A stretch of 64,000 bases of DNA from Planktomarina temperata RCA23 (lineage in GTDB: Bacteria; Pseudomonadota; Alphaproteobacteria; Rhodobacterales; Rhodobacteraceae), in assembly GCF_000738435.1 (NCBI RefSeq), contig NZ_CP003984.1, positions 1,736,001-1,800,000 on the forward strand, in the 5' to 3' direction. The position numbers and the translations under genes are program-made. How positions within the stretch are numbered: the first letter of the stretch is position 1; each line of letters begins with the position of its first letter. The notes below the pieces were generated by a model, which was not told the origin of the DNA, did not search any database, and worked only from the letters and a program-made list of their open reading frames with translations. Shown here piece by piece: positions 29,405 through 42,616 of this stretch.

Positions 29405-30724
29405 CTACCGCTCAATCCAGCCTTTGAGGGTTTCAAAGCTCTTTTTGGGTCGGCGCTCCAGGGTGTCGAAATCCACATGCACCAGGCCGAAGCGTTTCTC
29501 ATAACCCAGGGCCCATTCGTAATTGTCCAGGAGCGACCAGATATAATATCCCATCAAAGGCGCGCCGTCCTTGATCGCGCGCATGGCCGCTTGCAGATGC
29601 GCCTCAATATAGGCAATGCGGGCATCGTCGGTGATGCAGCCTGACACAATCGGATCGTCATTGGCCATGCCATTTTCGGTGACATAGATCGGTAGGCCCT
29701 TGGTGTACTCGCGGTGGGTGCGCATGATGAACTCATAAAGCCCATCTGGATAAATCTCCCACCCCATTTGGGTTTTCTCCAAAGGCCCTTCAACCGCTTG
29801 CACATTTGGCCAGGCGCCGTCTTTGGCTGCAATATTTGAACGGGTGTAATAATTAATGCCGCACCAATCAACCGGTGCCCCAATCAAATCAAAATCACTG
29901 TCCCAACCCTTGGGCAAATGCGGCTCAAGCCCTTCCAGCACCAAATCTGGATAGGACTTGTGGAATATACCGCCCATGAAGAAACGATTGTAAATTGCGT
30001 CATAGCGCCCTGCAGCCGCGGCGGACTCTGCGCTATCATCTGCGGGATTGGCAAATTCGAAATTGCACACAGCCCCAAGGTTCGTCATACCCAAGGACCG
30101 CATCCGGGCAATCGCGGTACCATGGGCGCAAAGCACGTGGTGCATTGCGCGTGCCGTCGCGCGAATATCACGCAGACCGGGCGCATGTGCCCCTTCAAAA
30201 TGTGACAACCAGCCGACGCACCAAGGCTCATTGATAGGAGCGACCGAAAACATCCGATCGCCAATCCGCCCCATGATGACATCGGTAAAATCGCCAAACC
30301 AATGGGCAATATCACGATTGCGCCAGCCGCCCTGATCCTCAAGAGCAGAGGGCATTTCCCAATGGTACAACGTGGCCGCGGGTTTCAATCCGCGCTCCAA
30401 CATCGCATCCGTGAGGCGATCATAAAAATCCAAGCCCTCTTGGTTGACCGGCCCCCTGCCCTCGGGCATCACCCGGGCCCAGCTGGTGGAAAATCTATAG
30501 GTGTCAAACCCCGCCGCAGCCACAAGGTCCAAATCTTGCTCAAAGCGGTGATAGTGGTCACAGGCCAATTGCCCATGCTCAGCGCGCACGACATTTCCAG
30601 GGGTGGCGGCAAAACTATCCCAATGGGTGAGCCCGGCCCCACCCTTGGCATGCCCTTCAATTTGGTAGGCCGATGTGGCCGTTCCAAATAGAAACCCTTC
30701 TGGAAAATCGCTGCGCTGTATCAA
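29405..30724 (-). CDS. GH1 family beta-glucosidase
   Basis: A 439-residue cytoplasmic glycoside hydrolase family 1 enzyme that removes beta-linked glucose or galactose from small glycosides. The acid/base is Glu166 in APINEPWC and the nucleophile is Glu350 in YVTENG. The N-terminal FLFGTATSAYQIEG is the family signature and no signal peptide is present. It is the last gene of the agl operon. The start is a TTG overlapping the aglK stop (TTGA), with GGTG about 8 bases before it. A beta-glucosidase in an alpha-glucoside operon broadens the range of imported disaccharides that can be split. Confidence 0.93.
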   Translation of the reverse strand: MIQRSDFPEGFLFGTATSAYQIEGHAKGGAGLTHWDSFAATPGNVVRAEHGQLACDHYHRFEQDLDLVAAAGFDTYRFSTSWARVMPEGRGPVNQEGLDFYDRLTDAMLERGLKPAATLYHWEMPSALEDQGGWRNRDIAHWFGDFTDVIMGRIGDRMFSVAPINEPWCVGWLSHFEGAHAPGLRDIRATARAMHHVLCAHGTAIARMRSLGMTNLGAVCNFEFANPADDSAESAAAAGRYDAIYNRFFMGGIFHKSYPDLVLEGLEPHLPKGWDSDFDLIGAPVDWCGINYYTRSNIAAKDGAWPNVQAVEGPLEKTQMGWEIYPDGLYEFIMRTHREYTKGLPIYVTENGMANDDPIVSGCITDDARIAYIEAHLQAAMRAIKDGAPLMGYYIWSLLDNYEWALGYEKRFGLVHVDFDTLERRPKKSFETLKGWIER

Positions 30725-31779
30725 AAGATATGCACCTTTTCAGGGTCAAAGCCAAAACGCACAACATCTCCTGCCGTCACATTTATAGCCTCTGCCGTGG
30801 CGAAGCGGAACAGCGTGTTGTCAGCGGCCATTAACTCGATGATTGTGTCCGTGCCCAGACGCTCCACCAAGGACACAGCACCCTCAAGTGGGCCTTTGTC
30901 ATCCATAATCAAATGCTGCGGACGAATGCCGAGTTTTACCGAATCGCCAATGGATTTTTCCGTGGACACCAAGCGCACATCACCCGTTTCAATGCCGCCA
31001 CCAGAAAACCGCCCCTGCTCTGGTGTTTCAGACTTCCCAGTTAACGTGCCGTGAAAGAAATTCATTGTGGGCGAGCCCAGAAATCCAGCAACGAACTCAT
31101 TGGCTGGCTTATTGAAAAGCTCCATCGGCGCGCCCACTTGCATCACCTCACCTGCTTTGAGCACGACAATCTTATCCGCCAGGGTCATCGCTTCGACTTG
31201 ATCATGGGTGACATAGATGGTTGTTGCTCCCAGTTGCGCATGGAGCCGCGCAATTTCCACCCTTGTGTCATGCCGCAGGGCCGCATCGAGATTGGAGAGC
31301 GGTTCATCAAACAAAAACACATCGGGATTGCGGACAATCGCCCGACCAATCGCCACCCTTTGGCGCTGCCCACCTGACAGAGCTGCCGGGCGGCGGTCCA
31401 GCAACGTCTCCATCTGCAAGATCTTCGCCGCCGCCTCAACCCGCTCCCGGATCTCTTTTTTGGGCACACCTTGCAGATCAAGCGAGAAAGCCATGTTATT
31501 ATAGACTGTCATATGCGGGTAGAGTGCATAAGATTGGAACACCATGGCAATGCCGCGTTTCGACGGCGGCAAATCCGTGACCGTCTTATCGGCAATGCAG
31601 ATATCGCCGCTGGTGAGCGTCTCAAGCCCGGCGATCAGCCGCAGCAGGGTCGACTTGCCACAGCCCGAGGGGCCAACAAAGACCACAAATTCGCCTTTTT
31701 CAATTTCCAACCCAACGTTGCGAATGACTTCCGTTTTGCCGAATGCCTTATTCACACCCTGTAATTCTACTTGAGCCAT
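30721..31779 (-). CDS. aglK: Alpha-glucoside ABC importer ATPase (MalK/UgpC class)
   Basis: A 352-residue ATPase of a CUT1 sugar importer. Walker A is GPSGCGKSTLLRLIAG, the signature is LSGGQRQRVAIGRAI, Walker B is VFLFDEPLSNLDA and the switch is THDQVEAM. A C-terminal regulatory OB/TOBE domain follows from about residue 240. The ATG abuts the TAA of the alpha-glucosidase gene. By order and family it corresponds to aglK of Sinorhizobium aglEFGAK. Confidence 0.92.
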   Translation of the reverse strand: MAQVELQGVNKAFGKTEVIRNVGLEIEKGEFVVFVGPSGCGKSTLLRLIAGLETLTSGDICIADKTVTDLPPSKRGIAMVFQSYALYPHMTVYNNMAFSLDLQGVPKKEIRERVEAAAKILQMETLLDRRPAALSGGQRQRVAIGRAIVRNPDVFLFDEPLSNLDAALRHDTRVEIARLHAQLGATTIYVTHDQVEAMTLADKIVVLKAGEVMQVGAPMELFNKPANEFVAGFLGSPTMNFFHGTLTGKSETPEQGRFSGGGIETGDVRLVSTEKSIGDSVKLGIRPQHLIMDDKGPLEGAVSLVERLGTDTIIELMAADNTLFRFATAEAINVTAGDVVRFGFDPEKVHIF

Positions 31780-33332: not shown

Positions 33333-34025
33333 TCAACCACCTTTTACGGAGCCAGCCAGCAGCCCACGAATGAAATACCGCTGCATCGACAGGAAGACGA
33401 CAACTGGCACGATCATGGAAATCACCGCAGATGCGTTTAGCAAATGCAGTTGATCTTTGAAGGTTCCCAATTGTTTTTGCAGCCGAATGGGGAAGACCAA
33501 ATCCGACGAATTGTTCGGCCCGATATACAAAGCCACGATCAAGTCATTCCATACCCAAAGAAATTGGAAGATGCTGAAAGAGGCCAAAGCCGGCACAGAA
33601 AGCGGTACGATGATCCGCGTGAAAATTTGCAAATGGCTCGCGCCATCAATTCGCGCGCTTTGCAAAAGCTCTTTGGGCAGGCCGACAATGTAATTGCGCA
33701 GCAGGTAAATCGCCAGCGGCAAGCCAAAGGCCGTGTGGGTGATCCAAAGGCTGGCAAAGGACTTGGACGCCACTTGGCAGCTGTCGGTCAGCTCACAATC
33801 GGTCAACCATTGGTTTAAGGCTGTGGCCCAAGAGGCAATTCCACTGAACCCTTGCAAGATAGGCAGGAAGGCCAATTGCGTTGGCACAACCATCAGTGAG
33901 ACCACAATCACAAACAACCAATCCCGGCCCGGAAACTGCATCCAAGCAAACGCATAGGCGGCGAAAGCGGCAATGGTGATTGGAATGATCGTTGCGGGAA
34001 TGGTGACAATGAATGAGGAGATCAA
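33333..34025 (-). CDS. aglG: Alpha-glucoside permease AglG, C-terminal part (frame-disrupted gene)
   Basis: This frame holds the core of a MalG-type permease: about five membrane helices and the ATPase-contacting EAA loop (KELLQSARIDGASHLQIFTRIIVPLS). The first ATG-like start is at 34025. However, the frame is open and clearly homologous up to the AAAA run at 34165-34168 (NGDFTWTFDQATAPKPKNLDVF), where it must join the N-terminal part. Restoring one A gives a single permease of about 408 residues. As read, this part alone would lack the first membrane helix. Confidence 0.85.
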   Translation of the reverse strand: MISSFIVTIPATIIPITIAAFAAYAFAWMQFPGRDWLFVIVVSLMVVPTQLAFLPILQGFSGIASWATALNQWLTDCELTDSCQVASKSFASLWITHTAFGLPLAIYLLRNYIVGLPKELLQSARIDGASHLQIFTRIIVPLSVPALASFSIFQFLWVWNDLIVALYIGPNNSSDLVFPIRLQKQLGTFKDQLHLLNASAVISMIVPVVVFLSMQRYFIRGLLAGSVKGG

Positions 34026-34558
34026 AGCATTGGGGACGTTCTTATTGTCAAATAAGACTTCAATATAGGCATCTGCCCCGAAGGCCGGATCTTGATTGAT
34101 AAAGACATCAAGGTTTTTGGGCTTGGGCGCCGTGGCCTGATCGAAGGTCCAGGTGAAGTCACCATTTTGGTTTCGAAAACAAAGGCGCCGCCCCGGACAT
34201 CCATCACCTCTCCGGCTGGCACCAATTTGCGGACCAACTTGGTTTTTCCCGGGTTTTCAGGATCGGCGATACGGGTCTTGATCAAAATCGATTTCACATC
34301 GCCCGAGACCGCATAGCCAGAGGCCTCGGCGTTGATCCGCTCCAGGATGTTACCACGCATGATCACAGCAGGCTCCATCACGCCCCGCTCATGGGTTGCA
34401 AACCGATGCCCCAATTCCGTCGGTGTAAATGAGGTCCAAAACCCGGAGGTTTTCGCGGCCACCTCAGAGCGCATCGACGTCGAGACGAGGGCCACAAAGG
34501 GCACGACCCAAATAAATACGATCAGGGCGAGGACAATATGGCTGAGAGTTTTTGTCAT
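34022..34558 (-). CDS. aglG: Alpha-glucoside permease AglG, N-terminal part (frame-disrupted gene)
   Basis: The first 131 or so codons encode the start of the permease: one membrane helix (residues 8-27), then a long periplasmic insertion with VMRGNILERINAEAS-like and ILIKTRIADPENPGKTKLVRKL segments, as in AglG proteins. After FVFETK the frame leaves homology and reads a Pro/Ser-rich nonsense tail to a stop at 34022. The cause is one missing base in the minus-strand run ACCAAAATGG (34165-34168). The gene follows aglF by 11 bp. Confidence 0.8.
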   Translation of the reverse strand: MTKTLSHIVLALIVFIWVVPFVALVSTSMRSEVAAKTSGFWTSFTPTELGHRFATHERGVMEPAVIMRGNILERINAEASGYAVSGDVKSILIKTRIADPENPGKTKLVRKLVPAGEVMDVRGGAFVFETKMVTSPGPSIRPRRPSPKTLMSLSIKIRPSGQMPILKSYLTIRTSPML

Positions 34559-38681: not shown

Positions 38682-39566
38682 CTATGGCACCTCTTGGCCA
38701 TTGGCCGCTTCAAACACCTCAAACCAAAGCTCACGGTCAAATGTAATGGCACGGGCGGCGTCTAATTTGGCGATGCGCGCGAGGTTATTGGTGCCAAACA
38801 CCGGCAGGATGCGCGCGGGATGCGCCAGCAACCAGGCCACTGCGGCCGCGGCCACATCACCGGCGCCGATCTCTTGCAGCAGGGTCAAAAGCTTAGGGTT
38901 CTGGCCCTGGAACAATGCTCCGCCTGCCAGCGGCGACCAAGCCATGGGCGGCACGCCAAATTCCTGTAAAAAGGCCAAATCGCCATTGGTAAATGCGCTA
39001 TTTTCCAAAACGCTCATTTCAATCTGATTGGTGACCAAAGGCGTTTTCATCGCTGATTGTAGTAAGGTCCAGTCATGGCGCTTAAAGTTGGACACGCCAA
39101 CGCAAGCCACCTTTCCAGAGGCCACCGCCGCGTCCAGAGCCGCCCCTGTCTCGTGATGATCCATCATCGGGTCAGGCCGGTGGACCAACAAAAGATCAAT
39201 CTTTTCTGTCCCCATAAGGCGCAAGGAGTGATCAATCGAGGCGGCAATATGCGCCGCTGACGTATCATAATGTTTCACCCGCGTGCTGGAATAGCGCCCG
39301 GCCCCAACAAGAATATCGCATTTGGTCACGATTTCGATTTGATCGCGCAGATGCGGCGCGGCGCGCAGAGCGTTGCCGAACACCTCTTCGGCCTCATAGC
39401 CGCCATAGATATCCGCTTGATCCATCGTCGTGATGCCCTGTGCCAAACAGGCCTCGATTTTCGCCTGCACATGGCGCGGGCTGGTGTCGCTGTCATCTGC
39501 CAGGCGCCACATGCCATAAATCAAACGGCTCAGGGCCACAGTCTCAGTCAGTGAAATTCGTTCCAT
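38682..39566 (-). CDS. Aldo/keto reductase (possible SmoB-like 6-oxo-glucose reductase)
   Basis: A 294-residue NADPH-dependent aldo/keto reductase. The (beta/alpha)8 barrel shows the catalytic tetrad region: Asp in TTMDQADIYGGYEAEEVFG (Asp and Tyr near residues 49-56), Lys in IVTKCDI near 82 and His in LLVHRPDPM near 127. The ATG overlaps the stop of the flavin monooxygenase gene (TAATG), so the two are translationally coupled. In the known sulfoquinovose monooxygenase pathway an enzyme of this class (SmoB) reduces 6-oxo-glucose to glucose after the monooxygenase step. That assignment is inference from the pairing. Confidence 0.75.
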   Translation of the reverse strand: MERISLTETVALSRLIYGMWRLADDSDTSPRHVQAKIEACLAQGITTMDQADIYGGYEAEEVFGNALRAAPHLRDQIEIVTKCDILVGAGRYSSTRVKHYDTSAAHIAASIDHSLRLMGTEKIDLLLVHRPDPMMDHHETGAALDAAVASGKVACVGVSNFKRHDWTLLQSAMKTPLVTNQIEMSVLENSAFTNGDLAFLQEFGVPPMAWSPLAGGALFQGQNPKLLTLLQEIGAGDVAAAAVAWLLAHPARILPVFGTNNLARIAKLDAARAITFDRELWFEVFEAANGQEVP

Positions 39567-40723
39567 TACACGCGGGGTCCATTTCCAAGTGGGGTTGCAG
39601 GGGTCTCATGGGGCACGCGCCCATACTCATGCGGCAAAGAACATGTTGCCATATGCGGCAAGACCAGCTTGCCTACGTAGTCACATTCTTCCAAATGCGG
39701 ATAGCCAGAAAAAATAAATGAGCGCATGCCCATCTTTTGGTAGGCCTCAAGCTCTGACAAAATTTGATCGGCAGATCCCACAAGGGCCGCGCCACAGCCA
39801 GAGCGGGCGCGGCCCACCCCGGTCCACAGATGCGGCTCGATAAACCCATCCATATCAGCCAAATCACGATTCCGCGCTTGCCGCGAAACCCCATAAGATC
39901 CGCTATCCAGGGCCCGGTCGCGGATCGCGCTGCCGGTTTCATCATCGAGCTTCGAGACCAATTCTTGCGCAAACTCGCGCGCTTCTTGCTCCGTATCGCG
40001 CACAATCATATGCACACGCAGCCCATAATCCAAAGTGCGACCATAGGTGGCCGCCCGTGCATGTACCGCCTGCATCCTTTGGCTCAAATCTTCCTTGGTC
40101 TCCGGCCACATGAGATAGACATCACAATGTTCGGCGCAAAGCTCGACCGCATCGGGAGAATAGCCGCCAAAATAAAGCAGCGGGCCACCGTTTTGTTGAT
40201 AGGGACGGGCCGGCTCCGTACTAACCCCTTGGAAGTTATAAATCTCTCCTGAAAAATTTATCTCATCGGCCGTCCAGGCTTGCTTGAGGATCTGCACCAC
40301 TTCACGCGATCTTTGATAGCGATAGGGGCTCGGCTCTTTTTGGCCTGGAAAATCGGATGAAATCACATTCAAGGTCAAACGCCCTTTGAGCATGTGATCC
40401 AATGTCGAGACCGTTCGCGCCAACATGATCGGCTGCATCTCACCGCAGCGAATGGCAGCCAGCATATTGATTTTCTCGGTCAACGGGGCGCATCCGGCAA
40501 CGAAAGACAAAGTGTCTTGCCCGACCTGATAGGAGGAAGGGCATAGGATATTGCGAAAGCCATTGACCTCTGATTGCTGCACAATTTTGCTGCAATGCGC
40601 CCAAGAGGAGCGCAATGCGCCATCGGGCACGCCAAGGTATTGGTAGTCATCCGAGCAGAGGGCCGAAAACCAAGAGACTTCGGCCGCTTTCAAATCAGCG
40701 GAGGTAATTGGAACGACGGTCAT
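39566..40723 (-). CDS. LLM-class flavin monooxygenase, SsuD-like sulfonate desulfonase (possible SmoC)
   Basis: A 385-residue bacterial luciferase-like monooxygenase closely resembling SsuD, the FMNH2-dependent enzyme that splits C-S bonds of alkanesulfonates. Family blocks are GFRNILCPSSYQVGQDTLSF, FINV/NVISSDFPGQ, PLLYFGGYSPDAVELCAEHCDVYLMWPETKED, VHMIVRDTEQEAREFA, WTGVGRARSGCGAALVGS and FIFSGYPHLEE. It would need a separate flavin reductase, and none is in the window. Its coupling to an aldo/keto reductase points to sulfoquinovose monooxygenase (SmoC) and away from general alkanesulfonate use. Both fit the sequence. Confidence 0.82.
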   Translation of the reverse strand: MTVVPITSADLKAAEVSWFSALCSDDYQYLGVPDGALRSSWAHCSKIVQQSEVNGFRNILCPSSYQVGQDTLSFVAGCAPLTEKINMLAAIRCGEMQPIMLARTVSTLDHMLKGRLTLNVISSDFPGQKEPSPYRYQRSREVVQILKQAWTADEINFSGEIYNFQGVSTEPARPYQQNGGPLLYFGGYSPDAVELCAEHCDVYLMWPETKEDLSQRMQAVHARAATYGRTLDYGLRVHMIVRDTEQEAREFAQELVSKLDDETGSAIRDRALDSGSYGVSRQARNRDLADMDGFIEPHLWTGVGRARSGCGAALVGSADQILSELEAYQKMGMRSFIFSGYPHLEECDYVGKLVLPHMATCSLPHEYGRVPHETPATPLGNGPRV

Positions 40724-40765
40724 TGCGGTCTCGAAAAATAGGCTTGCATTCCACGTTTAAACCTC

Positions 40766-40777
40766 ACATCAAGATGT
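40766..40777. promoter_or_regulatory. Inverted repeat, candidate GntR operator
   Basis: ACATC-AA-GATGT lies in the 63-bp gap between the divergent monooxygenase and GntR genes, about 10 bp before the regulator start. It is the only clear palindrome there apart from GTTTAAAC nearby. Confidence 0.5.
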
Positions 40778-40786
40778 AAATCAATA

Positions 40787-41521
40787 GTGGATCAATTTGC
40801 AAACCCCATGGCCAATCCAACCCCCTCACCCGGCGCTTTGCCCACCTATGTGCAGATCAGCGAAGCCATCGCGCGCCGCATCACTGCAGGGCAATGGCTT
40901 GACGGCGAGCGCTTGCCACCGGAACGGACCATGGCGGCAGAATTTGGCGTGGCTGTGGGCACTCTGCGCAAGGCCTTAAGCCGCCTGCAAGGCCAACAGC
41001 TCATTCGCAGCAAACACGGATCAGGGAATTACATAAATATAACGCCGCAAGCCGCTAATATTTATTCATTCTTTAGGCTGGAATCTCTCACTGGGGCCGG
41101 CCTTCCGACCGCGGAGCTTTTGTCGGTTGACCGGATTCCAAAACCTATGGATGCGCCATATTTTGGCCCAGATTCAGCCGCTTTTCGCTTCCGCCGCTTG
41201 CGGTTTCTCGATCACCAACCCGCCGCCCTTGAAGAGATATGGCTCGACGGTTCAGTGGCCGATCATATCGCCGCTGAAGAGATTTCAGAGTCGCTCTATC
41301 ATACCTATCAAACCCGTTTTGGACTGTGGATTGTAAGGGCCGAGGATCACGTCACTTTTGCTCCAACACCACCTTGGAGCGTAGATCAATTTGGTCTGCG
41401 CCCTGGCGAGACAGCCGGTTATGTCGAAAGAATCGCATGGGCCAATACAGGCGCGCCCCTCGAGTTTTCACGAAACTGGTATGATCCTTCCGTTTCACGC
41501 TATGTCGCACGTATCAAGTAA
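40787..41521 (+). CDS. GntR-family regulator, HutC/UTRA type
   Basis: A 244-residue regulator with an N-terminal winged helix (YVQISEAIARRITAGQWLDGERLPPER and VGTLRKALSRLQGQQLI) and a UTRA-type ligand domain (residues 90-240). The start is taken as GTG at 40787; an ATG at 40808 is the alternative, and neither has a strong ribosome site. It is divergent from the monooxygenase-reductase pair and 9 bp before a Gfo/Idh gene. It is probably the local regulator of this four-gene module, with a sugar or sugar-acid ligand. Confidence 0.85.
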   Translation: MDQFANPMANPTPSPGALPTYVQISEAIARRITAGQWLDGERLPPERTMAAEFGVAVGTLRKALSRLQGQQLIRSKHGSGNYINITPQAANIYSFFRLESLTGAGLPTAELLSVDRIPKPMDAPYFGPDSAAFRFRRLRFLDHQPAALEEIWLDGSVADHIAAEEISESLYHTYQTRFGLWIVRAEDHVTFAPTPPWSVDQFGLRPGETAGYVERIAWANTGAPLEFSRNWYDPSVSRYVARIK

Positions 41522-41530
41522 GGACAGATA

Positions 41531-42616
41531 ATGACACTACGCTATGGATTAATTGGCTGCGGCATGATGGGCCAGGAGCATATTCGCAATATTGAGCTGT
41601 TAGACGACACGCAGATCACCGTTGTCTTTGAACCAGACGCCCAGATGCGCGCACAGGCCGCGAAGGCTTTGCCGAATGCCACAATGGTTGACAGTCTGGA
41701 CGCGCTCTTAGCCTTCGAAGCTCTAGATTGCTTGGTCATTGTCAGCCCCAATCACTGCCATATGGCACAGCTTCAACAGATCGCGGCCCTGCGGGCCTTG
41801 CCGATCCTCTGCGAAAAGCCGCTCTTCACAGATCCTGCCGATTTGGCGCAGGCTACGGCCTTCGCCCAATCTTACCCCGCCCCGGTTTGGGTTGCGATGG
41901 AATATCGCTATATGCCGCCTGTTGCGGCGTTGATTGAGCAAGCCGAGGAGGTCACCGGCGGGATTAAAATGCTCACCATACGCGAGCATCGCTTTCCGTT
42001 TCTGCCAAAAGTTGGAGATTGGAACCGCTTCAATCATAATTCCGGCGGAACATTGGTTGAAAAATGCTGCCATTTCTTTGATCTCATGCGGCTGATTTTA
42101 AAATCTGACCCAATACGGGTGATGGCCAGCGCGGGTCAGGAAGTGAATCACCTCGATGAGGTCTATGCGGGACATCGCTCAGACATCTGGGACTGCGGCT
42201 ATGTCATCGTTGACTTCGCCAGCGGTGCCCGCGCCATGTTAGAGTTGAGCATGTTCGCTGAAGGCTCAGAATATCAGGAAGAAATTCACGCCGTCGGGCC
42301 CAAAGGAAAGATTGCCTGCAATGTGCCCGGCCCGGCGCGTTTTTGGCCGACTCATATGCCATCCCCGCCGGTCCCTCATGTTGTGATCAGCCCGCGCAGT
42401 CCGATGGGCCCACGCCGGATCGACACCCCAGTGCCCAAAGCGCTCCTCGCCGCCGGTGACCACAATGGCTCAACCTTTTATCAACATCAAAAATTTCAAC
42501 AGGTTGTCTTGCAGGGCGCGGCGCCAGAGGTCAGCCTCACCGATGGGATTTGGGCCGTGCGCATGGGTCAGGCGGCCCAAGTTTCGGCGCTGGAAAACCG
42601 GGTGGTGGAGCTTTAA
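41531..42616 (+). CDS. Gfo/Idh/MocA family enzyme of the monooxygenase module
   Basis: A 361-residue NAD(P)-binding protein: Rossmann motif [25 protein letters not shown] near residue 96 and the catalytic-region [19 protein letters not shown] near residue 180. It is cotranscribed with the GntR regulator (9-bp gap). This fold includes sugar dehydrogenases and also NAD-dependent glycosidases (GH109-like). In the sulfoquinovose hypothesis it could release sulfoquinovose from its glycoside. From sequence alone a dehydrogenase is equally likely. The stop overlaps the convergent pgi stop within TTTAAA. Confidence 0.82.

What the first reader, a model, noticed from the sequence alone, without database searches (positions are those of the whole stretch)
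38682..42616. Possible sulfoquinovose desulfonation module beside pgi-pgl-zwf
Seen: an SsuD-like FMNH2 monooxygenase and an aldo/keto reductase are translationally coupled (TAATG), divergent from a GntR regulator and a Gfo/Idh-fold protein, all flanked by sugar operons and pgi-pgl-zwf. Known: the sulfo-SMO route pairs a SsuD-like SQ monooxygenase (SmoC) with an aldo/keto reductase (SmoB) that turns 6-oxo-glucose into glucose. NAD-dependent sulfoquinovosidases of a Gfo/Idh-like fold (GH188) have, as I recall, also been reported. Inferred: the four genes release glucose and sulfite from sulfoquinovose or its glycoside, with a GntR regulator and an NAD-type glycosidase in place of the LacI and GH31 partners of Agrobacterium. 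A flavin reductase and a dedicated importer are absent here, so the set may be split across the genome.
Basis: partly seen in the sequence, partly recalled or inferred. Interest (0 to 1): 0.7.

Follow-up and report, generated by a model that had tools for sequence, protein, structure and literature searches.

The report
Sulfosugar-to-glucose gene module in marine bacterium
Four neighbouring genes look like a known bacterial kit that strips sulfite off the plant and algal sulfosugar sulfoquinovose and leaves glucose; this type of kit is already described in related sea bacteria, but this copy stands without the usual linked importer and flavin helper gene.

Summary
The monooxygenase (39566-40723) is 77% and 76% identical to 7olf and 7oh2 (SmoC, recalled), 34% to SsuD, and groups apart from Ssu/Msu. 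The aldo/keto reductase is 64% identical to 7bby (SmoB, recalled). The Gfo/Idh protein is 50% identical to GH188 chain 8qc2 and keeps eight of eight published sulfoquinovose-contacting residues. Kaur 2023 already reports GH188 as near-universal in Roseobacter sulfo-SMO clusters: a new member of a known kind. The genome is Planktomarina-like.

Found here: (1) a tandem repeat (40776-40796) between the divergent operons, probably the GntR operator, within one mismatch in 98 of 106 distinct regions and exact once in this genome. (2) The linked flavin reductase (36 of 40 relatives) and TRAP importer (26 of 40) are missing, with no close homologue found in the families searched; yet the genes show strong purifying selection. 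(3) The neighbouring alpha-glucoside-type ABC importer directly follows smo genes in two other lineages, so it may import the sulfosugar glycoside; but one of its permease genes is frame-broken in this assembly. pgi-pgl-zwf adjacency is local to the genus. No enzyme activity was tested.

The parts
39566..40723 (-). SmoC-like FMNH2-dependent sulfoquinovose monooxygenase
   Evidence: 77.3% to 7olf, 76.0% to 7oh2, 34.8% to 7jv3 (MsuD, recalled), 33.8% to 1nqk (SsuD); tree; TIGR03565 243.7 bits, under its 518.2 cut-off
38682..39566 (-). SmoB-like aldo/keto reductase (6-oxo-glucose to glucose, inferred)
   Evidence: 64.2% to 7bby; PF00248; overlaps smoC by TAATG
40787..41521 (+). GntR/UTRA regulator; likely start ATG 40808
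   Evidence: PF00392 and PF07702; in 39 of 40 relatives' loci; start by comparison with L104/L105 ORFs
41531..42616 (+). GH188-type NAD+-dependent sulfoquinovosidase
   Evidence: 63.5% to 8zn9, 50.3% to 8qc2; K96 Y125 R154 L158 K160 E177 H181 H311 match the published SQ-contact residues
40776..40796 (+). Tandem direct repeat GTAAATCAATAGTGGATCAAT, probable GntR operator
   Evidence: Pattern GTNNATCAANNGTNNATCAA: 50 of 106 distinct divergent regions (window included) exact, 98 within 1 mismatch, 106 within 3; dinucleotide shuffles average 0 of 106 within 1 and about 1.1 within 3; reversed pattern never under 4 mismatches; one exact site in the genome
37635..38675 (+). LacI-family regulator, probably of the neighbouring agl-type operon (not part of the core module)
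   Evidence: PF00356/PF13377; also in L104 and L105
35922..37262 (-). agl-type ABC solute-binding protein, candidate importer of the module's substrate
   Evidence: PF01547; an 89% homologue follows smo genes in L054/L129 and an 83% one in L136
34570..35823 (-). agl-type ABC permease 1
   Evidence: PF00528
33342..34558 (-). agl-type ABC permease 2, frame broken in this assembly
   Evidence: the L104 protein matches in two frames, 91% and 92%; intact ORFs in L104 and L054
31780..33336 (-). GH13 enzyme of the agl-type operon, alpha-glucosidase-like
   Evidence: PF00128; best solved chains are an alpha-glucosyltransferase and alpha-glucosidases
30721..31779 (-). agl-type ABC ATPase
   Evidence: PF00005
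42613..46340 (-). pgi, pgl, zwf neighbours (glucose-6-phosphate metabolism); adjacency seen only within the genus

Best explanation
A sulfolytic sulfoquinovose monooxygenase (sulfo-SMO) module with a GH188 sulfoquinovosidase. Proposed working: a sulfoquinovosyl glycoside (most likely sulfoquinovosyl glycerol) enters the cell; the GH188 enzyme cleaves it with bound NAD+ by transient C3 oxidation to sulfoquinovose plus aglycone; the SmoC-like enzyme, with FMNH2 and O2, cleaves the C-S bond to sulfite and 6-oxo-glucose; the SmoB-like reductase makes glucose, which joins central metabolism. The GntR/UTRA protein probably binds the tandem repeat between the divergent operons and is released by a pathway metabolite. 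Shown here: gene identity, residue conservation, conserved layout, conserved repeat, purifying selection. Inferred: substrate, chemistry, regulation, and that FMNH2 comes from a general flavin reductase and import from a non-dedicated transporter, perhaps the adjacent agl-type ABC system.
For: Closest solved chains and identities; tree apart from SsuD/MsuD; 8 of 8 SQ-contact residues; AKR, GntR and GH188 in the loci of 39, 39 and 37 of 40 relatives (a 38th GH188 hit, 23% identical, is discounted) and in 67, 77 and 75 of 80 named loci, several cut by contig ends; no GH31; no second SsuD-like gene; window versus L104 dN/dS 0.036 (SMO), 0.048 (AKR), 0.097 (GntR), 0.078 (GH188); Kaur 2023 on GH188 in Roseobacter sulfo-SMO clusters; co-located SmoB plus SmoC as the working definition of a sulfo-SMO genome (PMC13372026, passages).
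Against: No flavin reductase or importer of the kinds found in relatives at the locus, and none close elsewhere in the families searched. That 7olf, 7oh2 and 7bby are characterised SmoC and SmoB is recalled; their PDB labels read 'Methanesulfonate sulfonatase', 'Alkanesulfonate monooxygenase' and 'Aryl-alcohol dehydrogenase'. No biochemical data for this organism.
Confidence: 0.88

Rival explanations
1. The module is a general alkanesulfonate (SsuD-type) sulfur-scavenging pair that happens to sit among sugar genes.
For: Same luciferase-like superfamily; best NCBIfam model is TIGR03565; five positions aligned to SsuD Arg, His, Arg, Tyr, His (taken by recall as R226, H228, R297, Y331, H333) are kept.
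Against: 243.7 bits against a 518.2 cut-off; 34% identity to SsuD against 77% to 7olf; tree; partner genes are a GH188 protein and an AKR; the SsuD Cys position aligns with Val in the window.
Confidence: 0.04
2. The genes are a reduced, partly decayed remnant: importer and flavin reductase are gone and the pathway no longer runs in this lineage, or serves only internally recycled sulfoquinovose.
For: L252, a congener, has TRAP, flavin reductase, AKR, SMO, GntR, GH188 and pgi-pgl-zwf together; IMCC1909 (L105/L250) has TRAP but no flavin reductase at the locus; the window and L104 have neither. The agl-type permease 2 is frame-broken here.
Against: All four ORFs open, all eight SQ-contact residues kept, dN/dS 0.036-0.097 against L104, which has neither partner at its locus; against L105 0.061-0.215; operator repeat exact.
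Confidence: 0.08
3. The module acts on a different 6-sulfo sugar or glycoside rather than sulfoquinovose.
For: Only sequence evidence exists; substrate breadth of these families is not fully known.
Against: SQ-contact residues, including the Glu that touches C4-OH, are kept; high identity to 7olf, 7oh2 and 7bby (SmoC and SmoB by recall).
Confidence: 0.04

Closest known systems
Sulfo-SMO (sulfo-ASMO) clusters of Roseobacter-clade bacteria with GH188 (Kaur 2023, PMC10755693; also PMC13372026)
   Same: SmoC-like plus SmoB-like enzymes with a GH188 sulfoquinovosidase and no GH31
   Different: This copy has no linked flavin reductase and no linked TRAP or SmoF-like importer; it lies between an agl-type operon and pgi-pgl-zwf
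Agrobacterium smo operon (recalled)
   Same: SmoB and SmoC functions
   Different: Agrobacterium, as I recall: LacI-type regulator, GH31 sulfoquinovosidase, linked ABC importer and flavin reductase; here GntR and GH188, without the last two
NAD+-dependent sulfoquinovosidases GH188 (8qc2, 8qc3)
   Same: 50.3% identity to 8qc2, 8 of 8 SQ-contact residues
   Different: Closest solved chain is 8zn9 (63.5%), whose organism and assay I could not trace
Alkanesulfonate monooxygenase SsuD / methanesulfonate MsuD
   Same: Superfamily and several active-site positions
   Different: 34-35% identity, separate branch, different partners

Membership tests
Sulfo-SMO pathway | SmoC-type monooxygenase, not SsuD/MsuD | tested here: met
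   identity and tree; the naming of the reference chains is recalled
Sulfo-SMO pathway | SmoB-type aldo/keto reductase co-located with SmoC | tested here: met
   64.2% to 7bby, TAATG overlap
Sulfo-SMO pathway | Linked flavin reductase (in many, not all, clusters: PMC9594981, passages) | tested here: not met
   none at the locus; best match elsewhere to the relatives' gene 32%. The cited review accepts clusters without it, so it is not strictly defining
Sulfo-SMO pathway | Sulfite release from sulfoquinovose | not testable with these tools
   needs an enzyme assay
GH188 | Published SQ-contact residues K107 Y136 R166 L170 K172 E189 H193 H321 | tested here: met
   8 of 8, anchored on R166 of 8qc2; the published Glu163 reads as 164 with this anchor, and is Glu in the window
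GH188 | Stands in for GH31 in its cluster | tested here: met
   no PF01055 match in the genome at E 0.001
GH188 | NAD+-dependent hydrolysis of sulfoquinovosides | not testable with these tools
   needs an enzyme assay
SsuD (TIGR03565) | Curated model cut-off 518.2 bits | tested here: not met
   243.7 bits

The most novel reading that the evidence does not exclude
In Planktomarina the usual sulfoquinovose TRAP importer and linked flavin reductase were lost, and import of sulfoquinovosyl glycerol was taken over by the adjacent agl-type ABC system, which would then be a shared importer of alpha-glycosyl-glycerols (glucosylglycerol and sulfoquinovosyl glycerol). In L136 the same kind of importer follows smoCB in one direction, next to GH188 and glpD-glpK, which would also use the released glycerol.
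Probability: 0.25. Interest if true: 0.5.

Novelty: new member of a known kind. Interest (0 to 1): 0.33.

Why it matters
Sulfoquinovose is an abundant organosulfur compound, and the RCA cluster, to which Planktomarina belongs, is a major Roseobacter lineage of temperate to polar oceans (PMC10675870, start of abstract and passages). The monooxygenase is present in 17 of 20 genomes of this genus, while the linked importer and flavin reductase come and go. That gives a concrete question: how does the sulfosugar enter cells that have the enzymes but not the usual importer? The conserved repeat is a marker for this type of cluster.

Tried and rejected
HutC-type operator GTNTANAC (recalled consensus): present in the window's intergenic region but in only 4 of 106 regions, 2.8 expected from mononucleotide shuffles; rejected. 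Remote GntR regulon: with up to 2 mismatches 9 sites in the genome against 3 for the reversed control; of the 8 sites other than the cluster's own I looked at 4 (1365309, 1371949, 2409940, 2975917), all inside listed ORFs; 4 were not looked at. Remote importer: among 13 DctP-type and 13 SBP_bac_1-type binding proteins the best identity to the relatives' TRAP protein is 28%, and none matched the SmoF-like one at 1e-5; the IMCC1909 TRAP protein has no match in this genome at 1e-60. Other binding-protein families were not searched. A chance reading of the layout is rejected by its conservation. Papers not held: Liu 2023 ISME J and the 2022 PNAS paper, and no supplements could be read, so whether this very cluster is shown in print is unknown. 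In the held library a search for Planktomarina plus sulfoquinovose found 0 papers, and sulfoquinovose plus GntR listed 9, none by title on Roseobacter clusters. The accession 8ZN9 could not be traced (4 unrelated hits). A search for glucosylglycerol with ABC transporter or sulfoquinovosyl gave 172 papers; the 12 listed showed nothing by title on shared import.
Full report
Observation. The monooxygenase stop and reductase start overlap as TAATG. The GntR start is more likely ATG 40808 than GTG 40787, by comparison with the ORFs of L104 and L105.

Genome. The window is G000:C1:1736001-1800000 of a single-contig 3,288,122-base genome. The nearest named loci are from Planktomarina sp. (L104, 96% in the monooxygenase) and strain IMCC1909 (L105, 95%); contigs of the same lengths appear among the genomes given as the same genus (G161, G160). 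I recall a genome of this size for Planktomarina temperata RCA23, but no call confirms that name.

Identity. Monooxygenase: 297 of 384 (77.3%) to 7olf, 292 of 384 (76.0%) to 7oh2, 119 of 342 (34.8%) to 7jv3, 120 of 355 (33.8%) to 1nqk. That 7olf and 7oh2 are SmoC, 7bby SmoB and 7jv3 MsuD is recalled; their PDB labels are. In a 24-row tree, with 17 relatives chosen from the 80 named and 40 family loci, the 20 sulfo-SMO rows are one group and the 3 Ssu/Msu rows another, both 100/100; the bootstrap had not fully settled and only 4 of 21 inner branches are starred. Reductase: 188 of 293 (64.2%) to 7bby. Gfo/Idh protein: 226 of 356 (63.5%) to 8zn9 and 180 of 358 (50.3%) to 8qc2, the GH188 structure named in PMC11465081 (part 1 of 2 of its text). 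The residues that Kaur 2023 (PMC10755693; parts 1 and 2 of 4 of its text; passages) lists around sulfoquinovose are all present: 8 of 8. The paper's Glu163 falls at 164 in my numbering; it is Glu in the window.

Distribution. 61 of 149 family genomes, this one included, have the monooxygenase at E <= 1e-100. I took 20-kb surroundings (two are shorter, at contig ends, and one starts at a contig end) for 40 of the other 60, leaning to high matches and long contigs. Within these loci: AKR 39, GntR 39, GH188 38 (one a 23% match that I discount, so 37), flavin reductase 36, TRAP binding protein 26, SmoF-like ABC binding protein 5. Among 80 named loci, several cut by contig ends and some the same genomes: GntR 77, GH188 75, AKR 67, flavin reductase 55, TRAP binding protein 29. 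pgi and zwf are near in 0 of 40 and 3 of 80, so that link is local: within the genus they flank the module in at least 8 of the 17 genomes that have it, the window included, three others being cut off by contig ends.

Known status. Kaur 2023 states that GH188 is near-universal in Roseobacter sulfo-SMO clusters and that essentially all Roseobacters investigated encode it. PMC13372026 (passages) counts genomes with co-located SmoB and SmoC as sulfo-SMO-positive and predicts the route in members of the Roseobacter clade. The module is thus a new member of a known kind. GntR has 0 hits in the main texts of PMC10755693, PMC13372026 and PMC12890257, and TRAP 0 in the first; figures and supplements could not be read.

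Regulation. Of 121 loci with the monooxygenase plus the window, 113 have GntR divergent within 260 bases, giving 106 distinct regions. A tandem repeat GTNNATCAANNGTNNATCAA is exact in 50, within 1 mismatch in 98 and within 3 in all 106. Dinucleotide shuffles give on average 0 of 106 within 1 mismatch and about 1.1 within 3; the reversed pattern is never under 4. The two ATCAAT blocks are nearly invariant while columns 4-7 bases beyond carry almost no information, which argues against shared ancestry alone. In the window it lies at 40776-40796, and it is the only exact site in the genome. That GntR binds it is inferred from position; overlap with a promoter element is not excluded. It is not universal within the genus: a strict form of the pattern was absent from 8 of the 16 genus loci tested, two or more of which are fragmentary or have less similar GntR proteins.

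Missing parts. The genome has two PF01613 genes and one PF03358 gene; the closest to the relatives' cluster flavin reductase is 32% identical and matches RutF best without reaching its cut-off (90.8 against 254.75 bits). No close TRAP or SmoF-like importer was found. In the genus, 17 of 20 genomes have the monooxygenase, in two of them (G150, G151) in separate pieces, and 9 of 20 have the IMCC1909-type TRAP binding protein, not the window's genome. At the locus, L252 keeps TRAP, flavin reductase and pgi-pgl-zwf together; IMCC1909, L251 and L253 have TRAP without the flavin reductase; the window and L104 have neither. The simplest reading is stepwise loss. PMC9594981 (passages) accepts clusters without a flavin reductase gene. 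The module is still under selection: window versus L104 dN/dS is 0.036-0.097 for the four genes, and versus L105 0.061-0.215. The reductase gene differs from IMCC1909 far more (dS 2.4) than the monooxygenase does (dS 0.59), which suggests an allele exchange there.

Importer idea. The agl-type binding protein beside the module has 89% and 83% relatives that follow smo genes in the same direction in L054/L129 (with two permeases, GH13 and ATPase) and in L136, where glpD and glpK lie beyond GH188. Among the 52 family genomes with both genes, binding proteins at 80% or more identity lie within 15 kb of the monooxygenase in 2 of 4, more distant ones in 1 of 48; the two genes also co-occur (52 of 61 against 36 of 88; Fisher p 4e-8, not corrected for relatedness, and split contigs can hide links). 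Against it: IMCC1909 has both systems, G139 has this binding protein on another contig and a TRAP at its smo cluster, G045 has the two on different contigs, the operon has its own LacI and a GH13 that fits alpha-glucoside use, and the second permease is frame-broken in this assembly. I give it 0.25.

Sulfite. The RCA genome survey reports soeABC in many species (PMC10675870, passage), a plausible fate of the sulfite; not tested in this genome.

Noticed in passing
window 33342-34558 (-): Second permease of the agl-type ABC operon is split between two reading frames (about 34166-34256); intact in L104 and L054. Could be a real lesion or an assembly error.
   Followed up: partly
G000:C1 about 1362223-1370579 (L197:5223-13579), outside the window: A ZorA-ZorB-ZorC-ZorD (Zorya type I) anti-phage set by PADLOC models.
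   Followed up: partly
relatives of the cluster, e.g. L071:3224-5035: A di-haem cytochrome c peroxidase/MauG-like gene (PF03150) lies in the loci of 17 of 40 relatives, mostly beyond the TRAP genes; role unknown.
   Followed up: no
L136:5698-19963: glpK, glpD, GH188, smoCB, agl-type ABC, GH13 and GH1 in one region with no GntR match: a possible glycosyl-glycerol utilisation island.
   Followed up: partly
window 38682-39566 versus L105:11158-12042: smoB is 94% identical to L104 but 79% to IMCC1909, while smoC is 94-96% identical to both: a likely recombination boundary between the two coupled genes.
   Followed up: partly
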